Shown: positions 6,142 to 11,301 of the stretch, piece by piece | Layout: each line of letters begins with the position of its first letter | Numbering within the stretch: the first letter of the stretch is position 1 | Assembly: GCA_029263125.1 (NCBI GenBank) | Contig: JAJCYD010000010.1 | Coordinates: 1 to 64,000, forward strand | Length of the DNA: 64,000 nucleotides | Reading direction: 5' to 3' | DNA from: Solirubrobacteraceae bacterium | GTDB lineage: Bacteria; Actinomycetota; Thermoleophilia; Solirubrobacterales; Solirubrobacteraceae | Made by a program: the position numbers and the translations under genes | The notes under the pieces: generated by a model | What the model was told of the DNA's origin: nothing | What the model saw: only the letters and a program-made list of their open reading frames with translations | Databases searched by the model: none

Positions 6142-6175
6142 GCGCCCGCGCGCCGGCCCGCGCCGCCACGCGCTG

Positions 6176-7024
6176 ATGCCCGAGCTGCCGGAGGTCGAGA
6201 CGATCCGCAGGCGCCTCGCGCCGCTTGTCGAGAGCCGCGTTCTACAGCGCGTCGAGATCCTCGACGCGCGCTGGTGTGCGCCGCTTGCGCCCGCCGCGCT
6301 CACCGACGCACTGGAGCATCGCGTGCTCGACAGGCTGGCGCGGCGCGGGAAGTACCTCATCGTGCAAGCGGTGGACGAGATGTTTCTGTTAATGCATCTG
6401 CGGATGACCGGAACGCTGCTGTATGACGCCGCGCCGCGGGCGCCATACGTGCGCGTGCGCCTGCACCTCGACGACGGCCACACCGTGAGCTTCTGCGATC
6501 CGCGGCGCTTTGGCACGGGCGAGCTGGCGGTGGGAGTAGCGGCGCTGGACGCCTTCTTGGACGCGCGCCTGGGCGTCGAGCCGCTGGGCCCGGACTTCAC
6601 CTCCGAGCAGCTGTACGCACAGACTCGCAACCGCCGCGCTCCGATCAAGGCCGTGCTTCTCGATCAGCGCGCAGTCGCCGGCGTGGGCAACATCTATGCC
6701 AACGAGGCGCTGTTTCGCGCCGGCATTCACCCTCTGCGCGAAGCGCGCGCGCTGACCCGCCGCCAGGTGACGGCATTGCGCGACGGCGTCGTCGCGTCAC
6801 TGCAGGCGGGCATCGACGCCGGCGGCGCCACGATCGACGACTTCCGTCACCCCGACGGCGTCAAGGGCGAGTTTCAGCACGAGTTCCTCGTCCACAGCCG
6901 CTGCGGTGAGCCGTGCCGGATCTGCTCGCGAACGATCGTCAAGTTCGTCGCGGCCGGACGCGGGACCTATGCGTGTGAGCGCTGCCAGACGCGGCCGCGC
7001 CGGCGACCTCTACGCGGCGATTAG
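6176..7024 (+). CDS. mutM: Formamidopyrimidine-DNA glycosylase (Fpg/MutM)
   Basis: This 282-residue bifunctional glycosylase/AP-lyase removes 8-oxoguanine and ring-opened purines from DNA. The protein begins MPELPEVE, giving the catalytic Pro1 and Glu2 after Met removal. RRGKYLI provides the conserved Lys, and VAGVGNIYANEALF is the helix-two-turn-helix signature. The C-terminal zinc finger has four cysteines (CGEPCRIC and CERC). The length fits the family. It sits immediately upstream of, and convergent with, the glutaredoxin cluster, a plausible oxidative-damage neighbourhood, though this is only inference. Confidence 0.96.
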   Translation: MPELPEVETIRRRLAPLVESRVLQRVEILDARWCAPLAPAALTDALEHRVLDRLARRGKYLIVQAVDEMFLLMHLRMTGTLLYDAAPRAPYVRVRLHLDDGHTVSFCDPRRFGTGELAVGVAALDAFLDARLGVEPLGPDFTSEQLYAQTRNRRAPIKAVLLDQRAVAGVGNIYANEALFRAGIHPLREARALTRRQVTALRDGVVASLQAGIDAGGATIDDFRHPDGVKGEFQHEFLVHSRCGEPCRICSRTIVKFVAAGRGTYACERCQTRPRRRPLRGD

Positions 7025-7264
7025 CTCCTTCAGGCGTCCAGACGCATCCGCTTCGGCGGTCTCCTGGTAGCCGCCGACGAGGACGTCGCCGACGAAGACC
7101 TGAGGCAGCGTCAACATGCCCGAGCACTTGGCCAGATCGACGAAGGCGTCGGGGTCGTCACGGACGTTGACCTCGCGAAAGGCGATCTCGCGCGCCTTGA
7201 GCAGCATCTTGACGCGCGTGCAGTATCCGCAGGGAATTGTGGTGTAGACGATGACCTCGCTCAC
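7010..7264 (-). CDS. Glutaredoxin, dithiol CGYC type
   Basis: This is the last of four tandem minus-strand glutaredoxin genes, each exactly 84 residues long. It has the dithiol active site CGYC near residue 12 and the cis-proline motif TLPQVFVG, followed by a VGGY turn that would contact glutathione or a mycothiol-like thiol. It ends 15 bases inside mutM, convergently. The gap to the upstream paralogue is 26 bases, so cotranscription is likely. Of the four it is closest to a classical glutaredoxin or mycoredoxin-like reductase. The physiological thiol is not visible from the sequence. Confidence 0.9.
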   Translation of the reverse strand: MSEVIVYTTIPCGYCTRVKMLLKAREIAFREVNVRDDPDAFVDLAKCSGMLTLPQVFVGDVLVGGYQETAEADASGRLKELIAA

Positions 7265-7290
7265 GCTGCTACAGGGTATCCGGCAGACCC

Positions 7291-7545
7291 TCAGTCCATG
7301 AGCAGATCGTCGAGCATCCCCGCCTGGTCTGCGACGAGCGTCTCCTCATAGCCGCCGAGCAGCACACTGCCGACGAAGACCTGCGGCAGCGTCGCCATGC
7401 CGGTGCGCTGCGACAGCTCGTGGTGCTCGGTGGAGTCCTCGACGACGATCACGTGCTCGTAGGGGACGTCGCGCTTCTCCAGCAGGCTCTGGACCGACCA
7501 GCAGGTCGTGCACAGCTCCGTGTCATAGATCGTGACCTTGCGCAT
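7291..7545 (-). CDS. Glutaredoxin-like protein, CTTC active site
   Basis: This is the third gene of the glutaredoxin quartet and also 84 residues. The active-site motif is CTTC followed by Trp, an unusual dipeptide for glutaredoxins, which changes the predicted redox potential. The cis-proline segment TLPQVFVG and the LGGYEET turn are kept, so the thiol-binding groove appears intact. Its ATG shares a base with the stop codon of the upstream paralogue (TGATG), indicating translational coupling. Substrate and reducing partner are unknown. Confidence 0.85.
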   Translation of the reverse strand: MRKVTIYDTELCTTCWSVQSLLEKRDVPYEHVIVVEDSTEHHELSQRTGMATLPQVFVGSVLLGGYEETLVADQAGMLDDLLMD

Positions 7546-7799
7546 CAGTCCACCAGCAGATCGTCGAGCATGCCCGAGTTGGCGGCGGCCATCGTGGCGT
7601 CGCCGCCGCCCACGAGGATCGCCCCGATGTAGACCTGGGGCAGGGACATCATGCCGCTGCACTGGGCGAGCTCCTGCAGCTGCGGCGAGTCGGGCGCGAC
7701 GACGATCTCCTCGTAGGGGATCTCGCGCGCGGCGAACAGCGCCTTGACCTGCTCGCAGGACTGGCAGACCTCGGTGCTGTAGAGCGTCACCATGCGCAC
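7545..7799 (-). CDS. Glutaredoxin-like protein, CQSC active site
   Basis: This is the second gene of the quartet, 84 residues, with a CQSC active site near residue 12. The motif SLPQVYIG supplies the cis-proline, and VGGGDATM replaces the usual GGYxE turn, so ligand binding may differ from the neighbours. The stop codon overlaps the next start by one base, and only 4 bases separate it from the first gene. It is clearly a paralogue of the other three by length, motif spacing and the shared C-terminus GMLDDLL-D. The specific role is unknown. Confidence 0.85.
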   Translation of the reverse strand: MRMVTLYSTEVCQSCEQVKALFAAREIPYEEIVVAPDSPQLQELAQCSGMMSLPQVYIGAILVGGGDATMAAANSGMLDDLLVD

Positions 7800-7803
7800 C
7801 GCG

Positions 7804-8058
7804 TCAGTCCTCGACCAGATCGGCGAGCATGCCGTTGGCGGCCGCTGCCTGAACCTCGTGGTAGCTGCCGAGGTAGATGTAGCCGACGAAGGCCTGGGGC
7901 AGCTTCATCGACCCGGCGCGCTCGCCGAGCTCGTGGTGCTCTTGGGAGTCGAGCTTGATGTTCGTCTCCTCGAAGGGAATATCGTTCGCCTCGAGCAGTG
8001 ACTTGAGCTGCGCGCTGAACCCGCAGCCTTCCTTCGTGTAGACGCTGACCGTTCTCAT
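7804..8058 (-). CDS. Glutaredoxin-like protein, monothiol CGFS type
   Basis: This is the first gene of the minus-strand quartet, 84 residues. It carries CGFS, the signature of monothiol glutaredoxins that bind or deliver [2Fe-2S] clusters in other organisms. It keeps KLPQAFVG as the cis-proline motif and LGSYHE as the glycine turn. CGFS in such a short, single-domain protein next to three dithiol paralogues is unusual for actinobacteria. A TAGACT box lies 9 bases before the ATG and would drive the whole cluster. A cluster-binding role is suggested by family knowledge but not shown. Confidence 0.85.
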   Translation of the reverse strand: MRTVSVYTKEGCGFSAQLKSLLEANDIPFEETNIKLDSQEHHELGERAGSMKLPQAFVGYIYLGSYHEVQAAAANGMLADLVED

Positions 8059-8067
8059 GGCGACGAA

Positions 8068-8073
8068 AGTCTA
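8068..8073 (-). promoter_or_regulatory. Putative -10 box of the glutaredoxin cluster
   Basis: TAGACT on the minus strand ends 9 bases before the ATG of the CGFS gene. It overlaps the opposite-strand TAATAC box of recO, so the two divergent transcripts would share one 25-base intergenic segment. No Shine-Dalgarno sequence fits in the remaining space. Confidence 0.5.
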
Positions 8074-8077
8074 ATAC
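8072..8077 (+). promoter_or_regulatory. Putative -10 box of recO
   Basis: TAATAC ends 6 bases before the recO ATG, the spacing expected for a leaderless transcript. The same bases overlap the opposite-strand glutaredoxin -10 box. Polymerase binding at one promoter should exclude the other. Confidence 0.5.
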
Positions 8078-8083
8078 CCGCCG

Positions 8084-8818
8084 ATGCCAGGCTCGCTGAA
8101 GACCGAGGCGGTGATCCTGCGCTCGATGCGCTTCGGCGAGGCCGACCGGATCCTGCATCTCTACACGCCGCATCGCGGTCGCATGAGCGCGATCGCCAAG
8201 GGCGTGCGCCGCACGCGCAGCCGCTTCGGCGGGCGCCTGGAGCCTTACTTTCGCCTGCATATGATCCTGTATGAGGGTCGCAGCGATCTCTTGACCGTCA
8301 CGAGCGCCGAGACGGTCAACGGCCATCCGCGCCTGCGCGAGGACGCCGCGGCGCTGGACAGCTCCGCGCGCGCGTGCGACGCGGTGTCGCGCCTGTTCGC
8401 CACGCCCGACCCGCATCCTGGCGTCTTCGCGCTGCTCTGCAACGAGCTCGCGCTGCTTGACAGTGGGGTGAACGGGGCTCGATCCCACGCCACGCACGCC
8501 AACCAGCTCGCGTTTCGGCTCAAGCTGCTGCTCGCGGCCGGCCTGGCGCCGCAGCTGGCGGCATGCGCGTCCTGTGGGGAGTCCGATCACCTGTCGGCGT
8601 TCTCGGGCGCCGCAGGCGGCGTCGTGTGCGGCGCCTGCGAGGCGTCGGGGTTCACGCTCGGAGAGGAGGCGCATGCGTTCATGACGGGCGCGCTGGGCGC
8701 GCCCCTGGCCGATGCGCCTGCCGCCGGCGAGCGCGCACTGCGCCAGGCCGACCGCGCGATCTCGGAAACCGTCGAGCATCACGCCAACGTGCGGCTGCGG
8801 CCGGCTGCCGCGGGCTGA
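8084..8818 (+). CDS. recO: DNA repair protein RecO
   Basis: This 244-residue protein is a recombination mediator that, with RecR, loads RecA onto SSB-coated single-stranded DNA. The N-terminal OB-fold begins with KTEAVILRSMRFGEADRI, the family signature. The C-terminal part has a four-cysteine zinc motif (two Cys in CASCGE, two in CGACEA) around residues 165-190, as in many Gram-positive RecO proteins. The length matches the family. The start is supported by the TAATAC box 6 bases upstream. It is expressed divergently from the glutaredoxin cluster. Confidence 0.93.
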   Translation: MPGSLKTEAVILRSMRFGEADRILHLYTPHRGRMSAIAKGVRRTRSRFGGRLEPYFRLHMILYEGRSDLLTVTSAETVNGHPRLREDAAALDSSARACDAVSRLFATPDPHPGVFALLCNELALLDSGVNGARSHATHANQLAFRLKLLLAAGLAPQLAACASCGESDHLSAFSGAAGGVVCGACEASGFTLGEEAHAFMTGALGAPLADAPAAGERALRQADRAISETVEHHANVRLRPAAAG

Positions 8819-8836: not shown

Positions 8837-11206
8837 TCACGGCGCGAACGCCGGGTCGACCGGATGTTCCTGGATCCCGTGGCTGCGACACCAGTGCACG
8901 TAGGACTCGCGGTCGGCGCCCAGCGGCTCGGGGAACGCCGCGCGCAGATCGTCGCGCAGCCCGTGGATTGCATACCACAGCCGCACGACGGCGGGCTCTC
9001 CGTCGTCGGCGGGCTCGGCCAGCCAGGCCTGAAAGCTCCCGGGCCCGGAATCGAGCAGGTTGCCGAAGCGTCGTCGCCGTAGGCCCAGCGCCGCGGCGAT
9101 CTGCACAACCGGTTCGGGAACCGCGGTGCCGTCGGCGAACGCCGCGCCGGGACGCCGCCCGGCGCCCGCGACGAGCCCTGCGGCCCGCAGCTGCTGCGCG
9201 TATCGCGCGTAGACCGGCCCGACGGCCTCGACGTCGTCGAAGCGCGCGCTCGGGGCGTGCCCCCAGATCACGTCCGGCTGGTCGGGATCGAACCCGCTGT
9301 GGTGCATCAGGCGCCAGTCGACGTCGCGTCGCTCGCGGACGTTCCACGGACCGACGTCGAAGCGGGCGTCGCGCAGCACGTGCACGCCGTCGAACATTCC
9401 CGGTGCGAGATCCAGCCAGCGCTGGTCGTAGTAGACGCCGGCGTCGGCGTCGCTGGTCAGTCCCGCTCGCAGCCGGTCGTTCCACCAGCGCAGGAAGGCC
9501 GTGGCCTGCGGGCCGGCGCGCACGCCGACCACGCCAGCGTTCATGGTGCCGGCCTTGAGCAACAGCAGTTCGCGCGACAGGTCCGGTGGGGTCGACGGAG
9601 GGTCGACGGAATGGGGCAGCAGTACGACCGGATGTGAGCGCACCGCGTCGAGGAGCGGCCCGAGGTCGCCCACGGCCTGGGTGTCGGCGTCGACATACAG
9701 CACGCACTCGTGCCCGAGGGCCAGCAGCGCGTCCAGCGCGGCGGGCTTTGCCTGCGTGACGGCATCGGCGACCATGCCGCCAAGCAGCAGCACGTCCAGC
9801 TCGTCGAGACCGAGGTCGGCGCAGTCCAGCGGCTCGAACGGCTCGGTTGCGTAGGCCCGATCGCAGGACGGTGCGCCCACCACGACGACCCGCAAGGCGA
9901 GGTCCGGGTGGTGACGGCGCAGCGAGTCGGCCAGGACGCGCGCGTACGGAAGCCGGTCGGGGGTGGCGACGGTCACGGCCACCATGTCGCGGTCCGACGG
10001 AGCTGGGGGATCGAGCTCGGGTCCGATCCCGAGCTGGCTGCCTGCTCTGCGTGCCCAGCCCGCGAATGCCGTCCGGTCCTCGCCGAGCGGGTCGGGAAAC
10101 GCGTCACGCAGGTCCCCACGGCAGGCATGCACCGCCCGCAGCAGGCGCGAGATCCTCGGGCGTCCCTCGTCGACCGGCGCCGTCATCCACGCGCGGAAGC
10201 TGTCCGGGCCGATGGAGAACGGATCGCCGAAGCGCTCGAGCTTGTCCGGCGGAAGGCTTCGCAGCATCGCGCGCGCAACATCCGGGACCGGGACGCCGTC
10301 CGCGAACACCGCGAACCCGTACTCGGCGTCGAGCGCCTGCGCCCAGCCCGCCTCCAGCAGCTCACGCCGGTAGCGCTCGAAGAGGCGGCGGGCCGAGCCG
10401 AGATCCGCGACGAGGACGCGATCGGTGTAGCGCGTGGCGCGCTCCGGGGTCTCCGGGTCATAGCCGCTGAAGCGCACCAGCGCGCATGGGCGTCCGGCGG
10501 TCCGGACATGCTCGCCGGCCGGATCGGCGGAGATCCGGCGCTCGGTGATGTTCCAGTGACCGACGTTGTAGGCCGGATCGCGCAGGATCGCGACGTCGGC
10601 GAACAGCGACGGCACGAGATCGATCCAGCGTTGCTCGAAGTGCATCCCCCCGGCGACGTCGTGGCGGCAGTGCTCATCCAGCCGCTCGTCCCACCAATCC
10701 AGGAACCGGCGCGCTTCCGGGTGGTCGGAGACGCCGAGGAACCCGAGGTTGTAGACCCCCGCGAGCAGGATCGTGCGCTCCCGCTCCGCCGCGTCTGCGC
10801 TCGGCGCCGGATCCAGCAGGTGGGGCGTGAGCAGGACGGCGCAGTCGCGCAGCCGTTCCAGCGCCGCGTCCTGGCGACCGACGATGAGGCTCTCCTGCTT
10901 GTAGAAGATCACGGCGTCGTGGCCGCGATCGAGCAGATTGGTCAGCAGCGCGCCGGTCAGCGCATAGGAGAAGGGCTGCTGCGCGGTACGAAACGCGCGC
11001 CTCAGCAGATCCGGACGCCCGAGCGCCGAGAGGGCCAGCAGCTCGCCGGGGAAGGCGCCGACCAGCGGGTCGCCGGATTCGGCCGGCGTATCTGCGAGCA
11101 GCGTCACGAACGGGATGTCCGGATGCTGCGCGGCGAAGGATCGCGCGACGACCGCGGCGGAGGGGAGCATCGCGCGTGCCGCGATCGTGCAGGCGCATGG
11201 CCGCAT
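8837..11206 (-). CDS. Tandem two-domain glycosyltransferase-like protein
   Basis: This 789-residue protein contains two homologous halves. Both carry a segment of the form FLxWWxxRL, a downstream QRWIDLVP or QRWLDLAP, and VGHWNITERR or VGPWNVRERR, typical of GT8-like hexosyltransferases of polysaccharide clusters. The second half (from about residue 400) keeps a DxD metal site in LYVDADTQ near residue 503. The first half has IFYKQES at the equivalent place (about residues 100-106), so its metal site is lost. The ATG at 11206 is chosen over an upstream start that adds an arginine-rich tail. It is monocistronic. The acceptor is unknown. Confidence 0.75.
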   Translation of the reverse strand: MRPCACTIAARAMLPSAAVVARSFAAQHPDIPFVTLLADTPAESGDPLVGAFPGELLALSALGRPDLLRRAFRTAQQPFSYALTGALLTNLLDRGHDAVIFYKQESLIVGRQDAALERLRDCAVLLTPHLLDPAPSADAAERERTILLAGVYNLGFLGVSDHPEARRFLDWWDERLDEHCRHDVAGGMHFEQRWIDLVPSLFADVAILRDPAYNVGHWNITERRISADPAGEHVRTAGRPCALVRFSGYDPETPERATRYTDRVLVADLGSARRLFERYRRELLEAGWAQALDAEYGFAVFADGVPVPDVARAMLRSLPPDKLERFGDPFSIGPDSFRAWMTAPVDEGRPRISRLLRAVHACRGDLRDAFPDPLGEDRTAFAGWARRAGSQLGIGPELDPPAPSDRDMVAVTVATPDRLPYARVLADSLRRHHPDLALRVVVVGAPSCDRAYATEPFEPLDCADLGLDELDVLLLGGMVADAVTQAKPAALDALLALGHECVLYVDADTQAVGDLGPLLDAVRSHPVVLLPHSVDPPSTPPDLSRELLLLKAGTMNAGVVGVRAGPQATAFLRWWNDRLRAGLTSDADAGVYYDQRWLDLAPGMFDGVHVLRDARFDVGPWNVRERRDVDWRLMHHSGFDPDQPDVIWGHAPSARFDDVEAVGPVYARYAQQLRAAGLVAGAGRRPGAAFADGTAVPEPVVQIAAALGLRRRRFGNLLDSGPGSFQAWLAEPADDGEPAVVRLWYAIHGLRDDLRAAFPEPLGADRESYVHWCRSHGIQEHPVDPAFAP

Positions 11207-11301
11207 GGCGCCAACATAGCCGGAGCGCGAACATGACGACCGGCGTGGTGGCATGGCTGCCGCCGTGACGCGCCGAGCATCGCCTGGCAGCGTCCACAGG
11301 T

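What the first reader, a model, noticed from the sequence alone, without database searches (positions are those of the whole stretch)
7010..8058. Four tandem 84-residue glutaredoxins with four different active sites
Seen directly: four adjacent minus-strand genes, all exactly 84 codons, with active-site motifs CGFS, CQSC, CTTC and CGYC in order, coupled by a TGATG overlap and gaps of 4 and 26 bases. Established: CGFS proteins bind Fe-S clusters, CxxC proteins are dithiol reductases, and the two central residues set the redox potential. Inference: a duplicated array tuned to different potentials or substrates, perhaps a relay or a hetero-oligomeric Fe-S scaffold. I know of no described four-gene glutaredoxin operon of this kind.
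Basis: partly seen in the sequence, partly recalled or inferred. Interest (0 to 1): 0.68.

Follow-up and report, generated by a model that had tools for sequence, protein, structure and literature searches.

The report
Genus-specific tandem glutaredoxin array
A soil-type actinobacterium (family Solirubrobacteraceae) has turned one widely shared glutaredoxin gene into a small neighbourhood of three to four diverged copies, one of which lost a catalytic cysteine; the copies look like ordinary redox proteins that split up their work, not a new iron-sulfur machine.

Summary
In detail: four adjacent minus-strand 84-codon glutaredoxin (Grx) genes (CGFS, CQSC, CTTC, CGYC) lie between recO and mutM. 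Across Solirubrobacteraceae this place normally holds ONE Grx. Five relatives in the window's genus hold THREE, in the same order: monothiol C[GQ]FS (A), CTLC (B), C[GS]FC (C). The fourth copy (CQSC, "X") was seen only in this genome. C descends from the shared single gene; A and B are separate, conserved orthologue groups under purifying selection. So it is a genus-level tandem expansion with conserved order, plus one extra copy.

The Fe-S scaffold idea is not supported. A is a class I (GrxC/Grx3-type) protein without the class II loop or WP motif. CGFS is not conserved in its orthologues, and a true Grx4 sits elsewhere in the genome. The array is at least two units: A-X-B is tightly coupled, while C has its own promoter/operator in three relatives.

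That operator (CTATACTT-nn-TGAAGT) controls a thiol/sulfur regulon across the family: trxB, trxA, moeZ-cysO-cysM, an A-type Fe-S carrier and the single Grx. The genus lacks recognisable gshB, mshC and bshC. Most likely these are thioredoxin-reductase-fed redoxins; A is a monothiol offshoot.

The parts
7804..8058 (-). Gene A: monothiol class I glutaredoxin, active site CGFS (C12, S15), Lys9 three residues before the Cys; the only cysteine of the protein
   Evidence: orthologues in five genus members (68-75% identity), CGFS in three and CQFS in two
7545..7799 (-). Gene X: dithiol glutaredoxin CQSC, GTG start; seen only in the window's genome
   Evidence: best placed next to B (83/53 support) but not resolved; grouping with this genome's own A or C copy is rejected (AU p 1e-4, 0.012)
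7291..7545 (-). Gene B: dithiol glutaredoxin CTTC, start codon overlaps the stop of X (TGATG)
   Evidence: orthologues CTLC in five genus members (60-63% identity)
7010..7264 (-). Gene C: dithiol glutaredoxin CGYC, GTG start; descendant of the family-wide single recO-mutM glutaredoxin
8059..8083 (.). 25-nt divergent intergenic region between gene A and recO; holds TAGACT(TTCGTCGCC)ATG, a -10-like element 9 nt before gene A, similar in all six genomes
7265..7290 (-). 26-nt gap before gene C; position of the conserved operator in G015/G016/G017, decayed here to a TACCCT -10-like remnant
8084..8818 (+). recO (flank, divergent)
   Evidence: synteny recO-Grx in the family genomes examined
6173..7024 (+). 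mutM/fpg (flank, convergent; overlaps the end of gene C)

Best explanation
The array is a genus-level tandem expansion of one ancestral class I (GrxC/Grx3-type) glutaredoxin that sits between recO and mutM throughout Solirubrobacteraceae. Shown: the ancestral gene persists as copy C (dithiol C[GS][FY]C). Before the sampled genus members split, copies A and B arose; A became a true monothiol protein (single Cys, S15) that carries Lys at the GSH-anchor position, and B became a CT[LT]C dithiol protein. The window's genome has one more dithiol copy, X. A-(X)-B are tightly packed with one promoter-like element before A; C has its own in relatives. Inferred: C, B and X are dithiol thiol-disulfide reductases recharged by thioredoxin reductase, because the ancestral gene shares its promoter/operator with trxB, trxA, moeZ-cysO-cysM and an A-type Fe-S carrier, lacks the GSH-anchor Lys, and the genus has no recognisable gshB, mshC or bshC. 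A catalyses one-cysteine exchange on mixed disulfides with a low-molecular-weight thiol, or holds one partner, without making intramolecular disulfides. The copies thus divide substrates rather than forming a relay or Fe-S scaffold.
For: One copy beside recO (usually also mutM) in the other family genomes inspected, three in five genus members, four here. No A-like copy outside the genus among 232 genomes of the order: 170-183 bits for A genes versus at most 62 bits in other genera. A and B are each one clade (100/99, 97/80), and the singles plus C form the rest. dN/dS 0.05-0.43 for A, B and C among the five relatives. K9, C12 and S15 conserved 6/6 in A, with no other Cys. Class I features and fold; class II loop argument: PMC7351949. 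True Grx4 elsewhere. Operator and regulon. No gshB/mshC/bshC in seven genus genomes. Promoters and gaps.
Against: No biochemistry or expression data. In the window's own genome the operator of gene C is decayed and gene A's is only distantly similar, so co-regulation with trxB is suggested for the family and three genus members, not here. GSH or another thiol could be made by enzymes not covered by PF02955/TIGR03447/TIGR03998; the genome has two YbdK-type carboxylate-amine ligases, and gshF-like enzymes were not searched. dN/dS for B between the window and relatives is higher (0.47-0.83), so relaxed or diversifying selection in this lineage is possible. Lys9 in A would fit GSH-type chemistry.
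Confidence: 0.6

Rival explanations
1. Hetero-oligomeric Fe-S scaffold or carrier: the CGFS protein and its dithiol partners bind and hand on [2Fe-2S] clusters.
For: The CGFS motif itself; the family operator also precedes an A-type Fe-S carrier gene, in this genome next to the true Grx4; some class I Grx bind clusters with GSH (e.g. yeast Grx6, PMC5053157, abstract listed).
Against: No class II loop, no WP motif, Grx4 model score far below cut-off; CQFS in two orthologues; separate canonical Grx4; no recognisable GSH synthetase to supply the usual co-ligand.
Confidence: 0.12
2. Redox-potential series: four paralogues with different CxxC dipeptides form a graded electron relay.
For: Different dipeptides, conserved per orthologue group (B always CT[LT]C, C always C[GS][FY]C).
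Against: A has one Cys and no intramolecular potential; C appears separately regulated in relatives; the number of copies varies (three or four).
Confidence: 0.12
3. Neutral tandem duplication: redundant or decaying copies with no separate roles.
For: X is found in one genome on a long branch; B and C have elevated dN/dS on the window lineage; the operator is lost in some genomes.
Against: A, B and C are kept intact in all six genomes where the locus is assembled, with active-site motifs preserved and dN/dS well below 1 among the relatives.
Confidence: 0.12

Closest known systems
Class I GrxC / E. coli glutaredoxin 3 (TIGR02181; PDB 3GRX, 1FOV)
   Same: Best family model for all four; same length; no loop insertion; predicted fold of A nearest to Grx3 (TM 0.85-0.87); cis-Pro motif kept.
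   Different: Scores stay below the curated cut-off (50-72 versus 90 bits); the anchor Lys is missing in B, C, X and in 21 of 22 single-copy relatives; A is monothiol.
CxxS-type class I monothiol glutaredoxins of eukaryotes (yeast Grx6/Grx7, poplar GrxS12)
   Same: Class I backbone with Ser in place of the second Cys, anchor Lys present in A (comparison partly from general knowledge).
   Different: Bacterial, GF in place of SY/PY, inside a tandem array, no recognised GSH synthesis in the genus.
Class II CGFS glutaredoxins (E. coli Grx4/GrxD, TIGR00365)
   Same: The four letters CGFS in gene A of four of six genomes.
   Different: No five-residue loop, no WP motif, weak model score; the genome's real Grx4 is elsewhere.
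Streptomyces SigR / M. tuberculosis SigH thiol-stress regulons
   Same: Same functions under shared control: thioredoxin reductase, thioredoxin, MoeZ/CysM cysteine pathway (PMC4803200 for SigH; SigR from general knowledge).
   Different: Different DNA element: one 18-bp inverted-repeat block over the -10, no conserved -35; regulator unknown.
Expanded CC-type (ROXY) glutaredoxins of land plants
   Same: Lineage-specific expansion of Grx with altered active sites (PMC6508501 abstract).
   Different: Unrelated expansion in plants; different active-site types and partners.

Membership tests
Class II CGFS glutaredoxin (Grx4/GrxD) | Grx4 model TIGR00365 above its curated cut-off (117.1 bits) | tested here: not met
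   Gene A 21.6 bits; the genome's other CGFS gene 129.8 bits
Class II CGFS glutaredoxin (Grx4/GrxD) | Five-residue loop between anchor Lys and active-site Cys (K-x7-C) and WP motif | tested here: not met
   Gene A has K-x2-C and KLP; the true Grx4 has K-GSPASPA-C and WPTIP; the loop is the determinant of Fe-S transfer per PMC7351949
Class II CGFS glutaredoxin (Grx4/GrxD) | Conserved CGFS motif | tested here: not met
   CGFS in four of six orthologues, CQFS in two
Class I glutaredoxin, GrxC/Grx3 type | Glutaredoxin domain, best match to TIGR02181, thioredoxin-like fold nearest Grx3 | tested here: met
   (best model for all four, though below the equivalog cut-off; fold predicted for A only)
Class I glutaredoxin, GrxC/Grx3 type | GSH-binding residues: anchor Lys, TVP-type motif with cis-Pro, GG | tested here: inconclusive
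   Lys only in A; LP kept in all; GG kept in B, C, X but GS in A
Class I glutaredoxin, GrxC/Grx3 type | GSH-dependent thiol transferase activity | not testable with these tools
   needs purified protein
NrdH redoxin | NrdH model TIGR02194 above its curated cut-off (85.75 bits) | tested here: not met
   19.8-31.3 bits
Mycoredoxin | Mycoredoxin model TIGR02200 above cut-off (89.5 bits), and mycothiol made by the host (MshC) | tested here: not met
   16-27 bits; in the own genome the best MshC hit is CysRS, and nothing passes the cut-off in 7 genus genomes
SigR/SigH-type regulon | Shared thiol/sulfur targets under one conserved promoter element | tested here: met
   (by sequence only; no expression data)
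SigR/SigH-type regulon | ECF sigma promoter with separate -35 and -10 elements | tested here: not met
   No conserved block upstream of the 18-bp element in 56 sites
SigR/SigH-type regulon | Cognate sigma factor / zinc anti-sigma pair | not tested

The most novel reading that the evidence does not exclude
In a lineage without recognisable glutathione, mycothiol or bacillithiol ligases, an ancestral TrxB-fed redoxin was duplicated into a set in which copy A regained the thiol-anchor Lys and became monothiol to work with a still unidentified low-molecular-weight thiol, while B and X took over new protein substrates; the parent gene answers to an undescribed regulator that controls the family's thioredoxin/cysteine/Fe-S regulon through CTATACTT-nn-TGAAGT.
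Probability: 0.2. Interest if true: 0.7.

Novelty: new variant of a known kind. Interest (0 to 1): 0.42.

Why it matters
It gives a clean natural series (one copy, three copies, four copies in one place) for watching a glutaredoxin split into dithiol and monothiol forms, in bacteria that seem to lack the usual thiol cofactors. The shared operator ties the ancestral gene to thioredoxin and cysteine synthesis and points to an unnamed thiol-stress regulator in a large, little-studied actinobacterial family. It also warns that the letters CGFS alone do not make an Fe-S glutaredoxin.

Tried and rejected
Class II Fe-S glutaredoxin reading of gene A: rejected on loop, model score and non-conserved motif. 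Origin of X from this genome's own A or C copy: rejected by AU tests; X with the window's B, with the whole A group or with the whole C group could not be separated. Canonical sigma-70 -35/-10 promoter scan of the array: no hit; no conserved -35 upstream of the operator. Defence-system families: none. First structure prediction with six close sequences was poor (pLDDT 57); repeated with 37 sequences (pLDDT 90). Tandem arrays elsewhere in the family: genomes with three to four hits were checked; the extra hits lie on other contigs or far away, except weak partial hits close together in G073 and G051 that are not full Grx pairs. Genus member G012 shows no array, but its assembly (77% complete) has no recO hit either, so it is uninformative. 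Literature searches gave no paper on a bacterial tandem glutaredoxin array, and on this group only a mention of a single GrxC in Gaiella occulta; only open-licence PMC papers were searched. An earlier count gave about 96 operator sites against 34 controls; the recount is 106 against 27.

Full report
WHAT IS THERE. The four minus-strand genes are exactly as described: A 8058-7804 CGFS, X 7799-7545 CQSC, B 7545-7291 CTTC, C 7264-7010 CGYC, each 84 codons; gaps 4 nt, a 1-nt overlap (TGATG) and 26 nt. All are Pfam glutaredoxins, 37-49% identical. They lie between recO (8084-8818, +, divergent, 25 nt away) and mutM (6173-7024, +, convergent).

RELATIVES. The genome is an actinobacterium of Solirubrobacteraceae: the genus members that could be named are mostly Solirubrobacteraceae MAGs, e.g. 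AVDCRST_MAG67. 146 genomes of the family were searched; the representatives of other genera that were read carry a single glutaredoxin next to recO, usually with mutM on the other side. Five other members of the window's genus carry three in fixed order: A (CGFS in three, CQFS in two), B (CTLC), C (CGFC/CSFC). The sixth (G012) has no recO hit either, so its locus is probably not assembled. A search of 232 genomes of the order with the A group finds true A genes only in this genus: 170-183 bits against at most 62 bits in other genera. The CQSC copy X was found only in the window's genome.

HISTORY. In the tree A is one clade (100/99), B is one clade (97/80), A+B+X form one clade (98/89), and C falls between these and the single-copy genes: C is the resident gene; A and B arose by duplication before the sampled genus members split. 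X sits weakly beside B (83/53) on a long branch; grouping it with the window's own A (AU p 1e-4) or C (p 0.012) is rejected, with the window's own B is not (p 0.26). Among the five relatives dN/dS is 0.05-0.43 in A, B and C, so all three are kept by selection; window-to-relative values are higher for B (0.47-0.83) and C (0.45-0.62) (NG86 on short GC-rich genes, rough).

NOT A CGFS-CLASS PROTEIN. All four score best with the Grx3 model, and gene A gives the Grx4 model only 21.6 bits against a cut-off of 117.1. A has K-x2-C and KLP where class II proteins have K-x7-C and WP. The loop, not the motif alone, was shown to decide between oxidoreductase and Fe-S transferase (PMC7351949). The genome has a canonical Grx4 (K-GSPASPA-CGFS, WPTIP; 129.8 bits) on another contig, divergent from an A-type Fe-S carrier gene. 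The AlphaFold model of A (pLDDT 89.7) is nearest to E. coli Grx3 and other class I structures. A is genuinely monothiol: its only Cys in all six genomes is C12, with S15 and K9 invariant.

THIOL BACKGROUND. The anchor Lys, described as strictly conserved in glutaredoxins (PMC7351949), is Thr in C and in 21 of 22 single-copy relatives (sequences), Asp or Thr in B, Thr in X, and Lys only in A. Seven genus genomes have no hit to GSH synthetase (PF02955) or BshC, and nothing over the cut-off for MshC; in the window's genome the best MshC hit is the ordinary CysRS. The two GCS2-family genes are YbdK-type. Other thiol pathways were not searched.

PROMOTERS AND A REGULON. Directly before the single-copy gene, most family members carry an almost invariant element, CTATACTT-nn-TGAAGT[A/C]: a -10-like TATACT overlapped by an inverted repeat ACTT-N4-AAGT, often only 1-2 nt before the start codon. 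With at most one mismatch it occurs 106 times in 24 family genomes against 27 for the reversed control pattern. Of the fetched sites, 42 stand before genes that read as thioredoxin reductase (8), thioredoxin (3), MoeZ-type adenylyltransferase-rhodanese (13), cysteine synthase (10) or an A-type Fe-S carrier (8); one of each was confirmed by NCBIfam, and a small CysO-like protein lies between moeZ and cysM in L129. In the window's own genome the element stands before trxB and the A-type carrier. No -35 block is conserved. The content resembles the SigH regulon of M. tuberculosis, which includes trxB2, moeZ and mec-cysO-cysM (PMC4803200), but the DNA element differs and the regulator is unknown. 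In the genus, gene C keeps the element in three relatives and has lost it in two and in the window; gene A has a related -10-like sequence (TAGACT/TACACT) at a fixed offset in all six. So A-(X)-B (gaps of 2-4 nt or overlap) looks like one unit and C another; the duplication probably carried its promoter, which then drifted.

MECHANISM. Best reading: the ancestral gene is a dithiol redoxin recharged by thioredoxin reductase and switched on with the cell's thiol-repair genes; its copies divided the work, with A becoming a monothiol exchanger and B/X dithiol reductases of other targets. The history and anatomy are shown; the electron source, substrates and exchange chemistry are inferred. An Fe-S scaffold and a graded redox relay remain possible but have no positive support beyond the motifs.

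VERDICT. A real, conserved, genus-limited gene-family expansion with an unusual monothiol member: a new variant of a known kind. The more far-reaching lead is the family-wide operator.

Noticed in passing
Operator sites in 24 family genomes; in the window's genome G000:C48:61801-61815 (trxB, L120) and G000:C11:129394-129408 (A-type Fe-S carrier, L121): An 18-bp element CTATACTT-nn-TGAAGT (inverted repeat ACTT-N4-AAGT over a -10-like TATACT) marks a thiol/sulfur regulon (trxB, trxA, moeZ-cysO-cysM, A-type Fe-S carrier, Grx) across Solirubrobacteraceae; the regulator is unknown and no description was found.
   Followed up: partly
L134 and L140 (G025, G031), L152 (G134): The same element stands directly before an ABC transporter gene (L134, L140) and before a DsbA/FrnE-like oxidoreductase gene (L152); possible further regulon members, identified by eye only.
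   Followed up: no
G000-wide and seven genus genomes: No recognisable GSH synthetase or BshC and no MshC over its cut-off, although several glutaredoxins are present; the low-molecular-weight thiol of this genus is unclear.
   Followed up: partly
L001 / L121 (G000:C11 about 128.8-129.8 kb): The canonical Grx4 gene is divergent from an A-type Fe-S carrier that carries the thiol-regulon operator, linking Fe-S assembly to the thiol response.
   Followed up: partly
window 8837-11254 (-): Large 805-aa ORF next to recO with two similar halves that look like glycosyltransferase-type domains; not examined.
   Followed up: no
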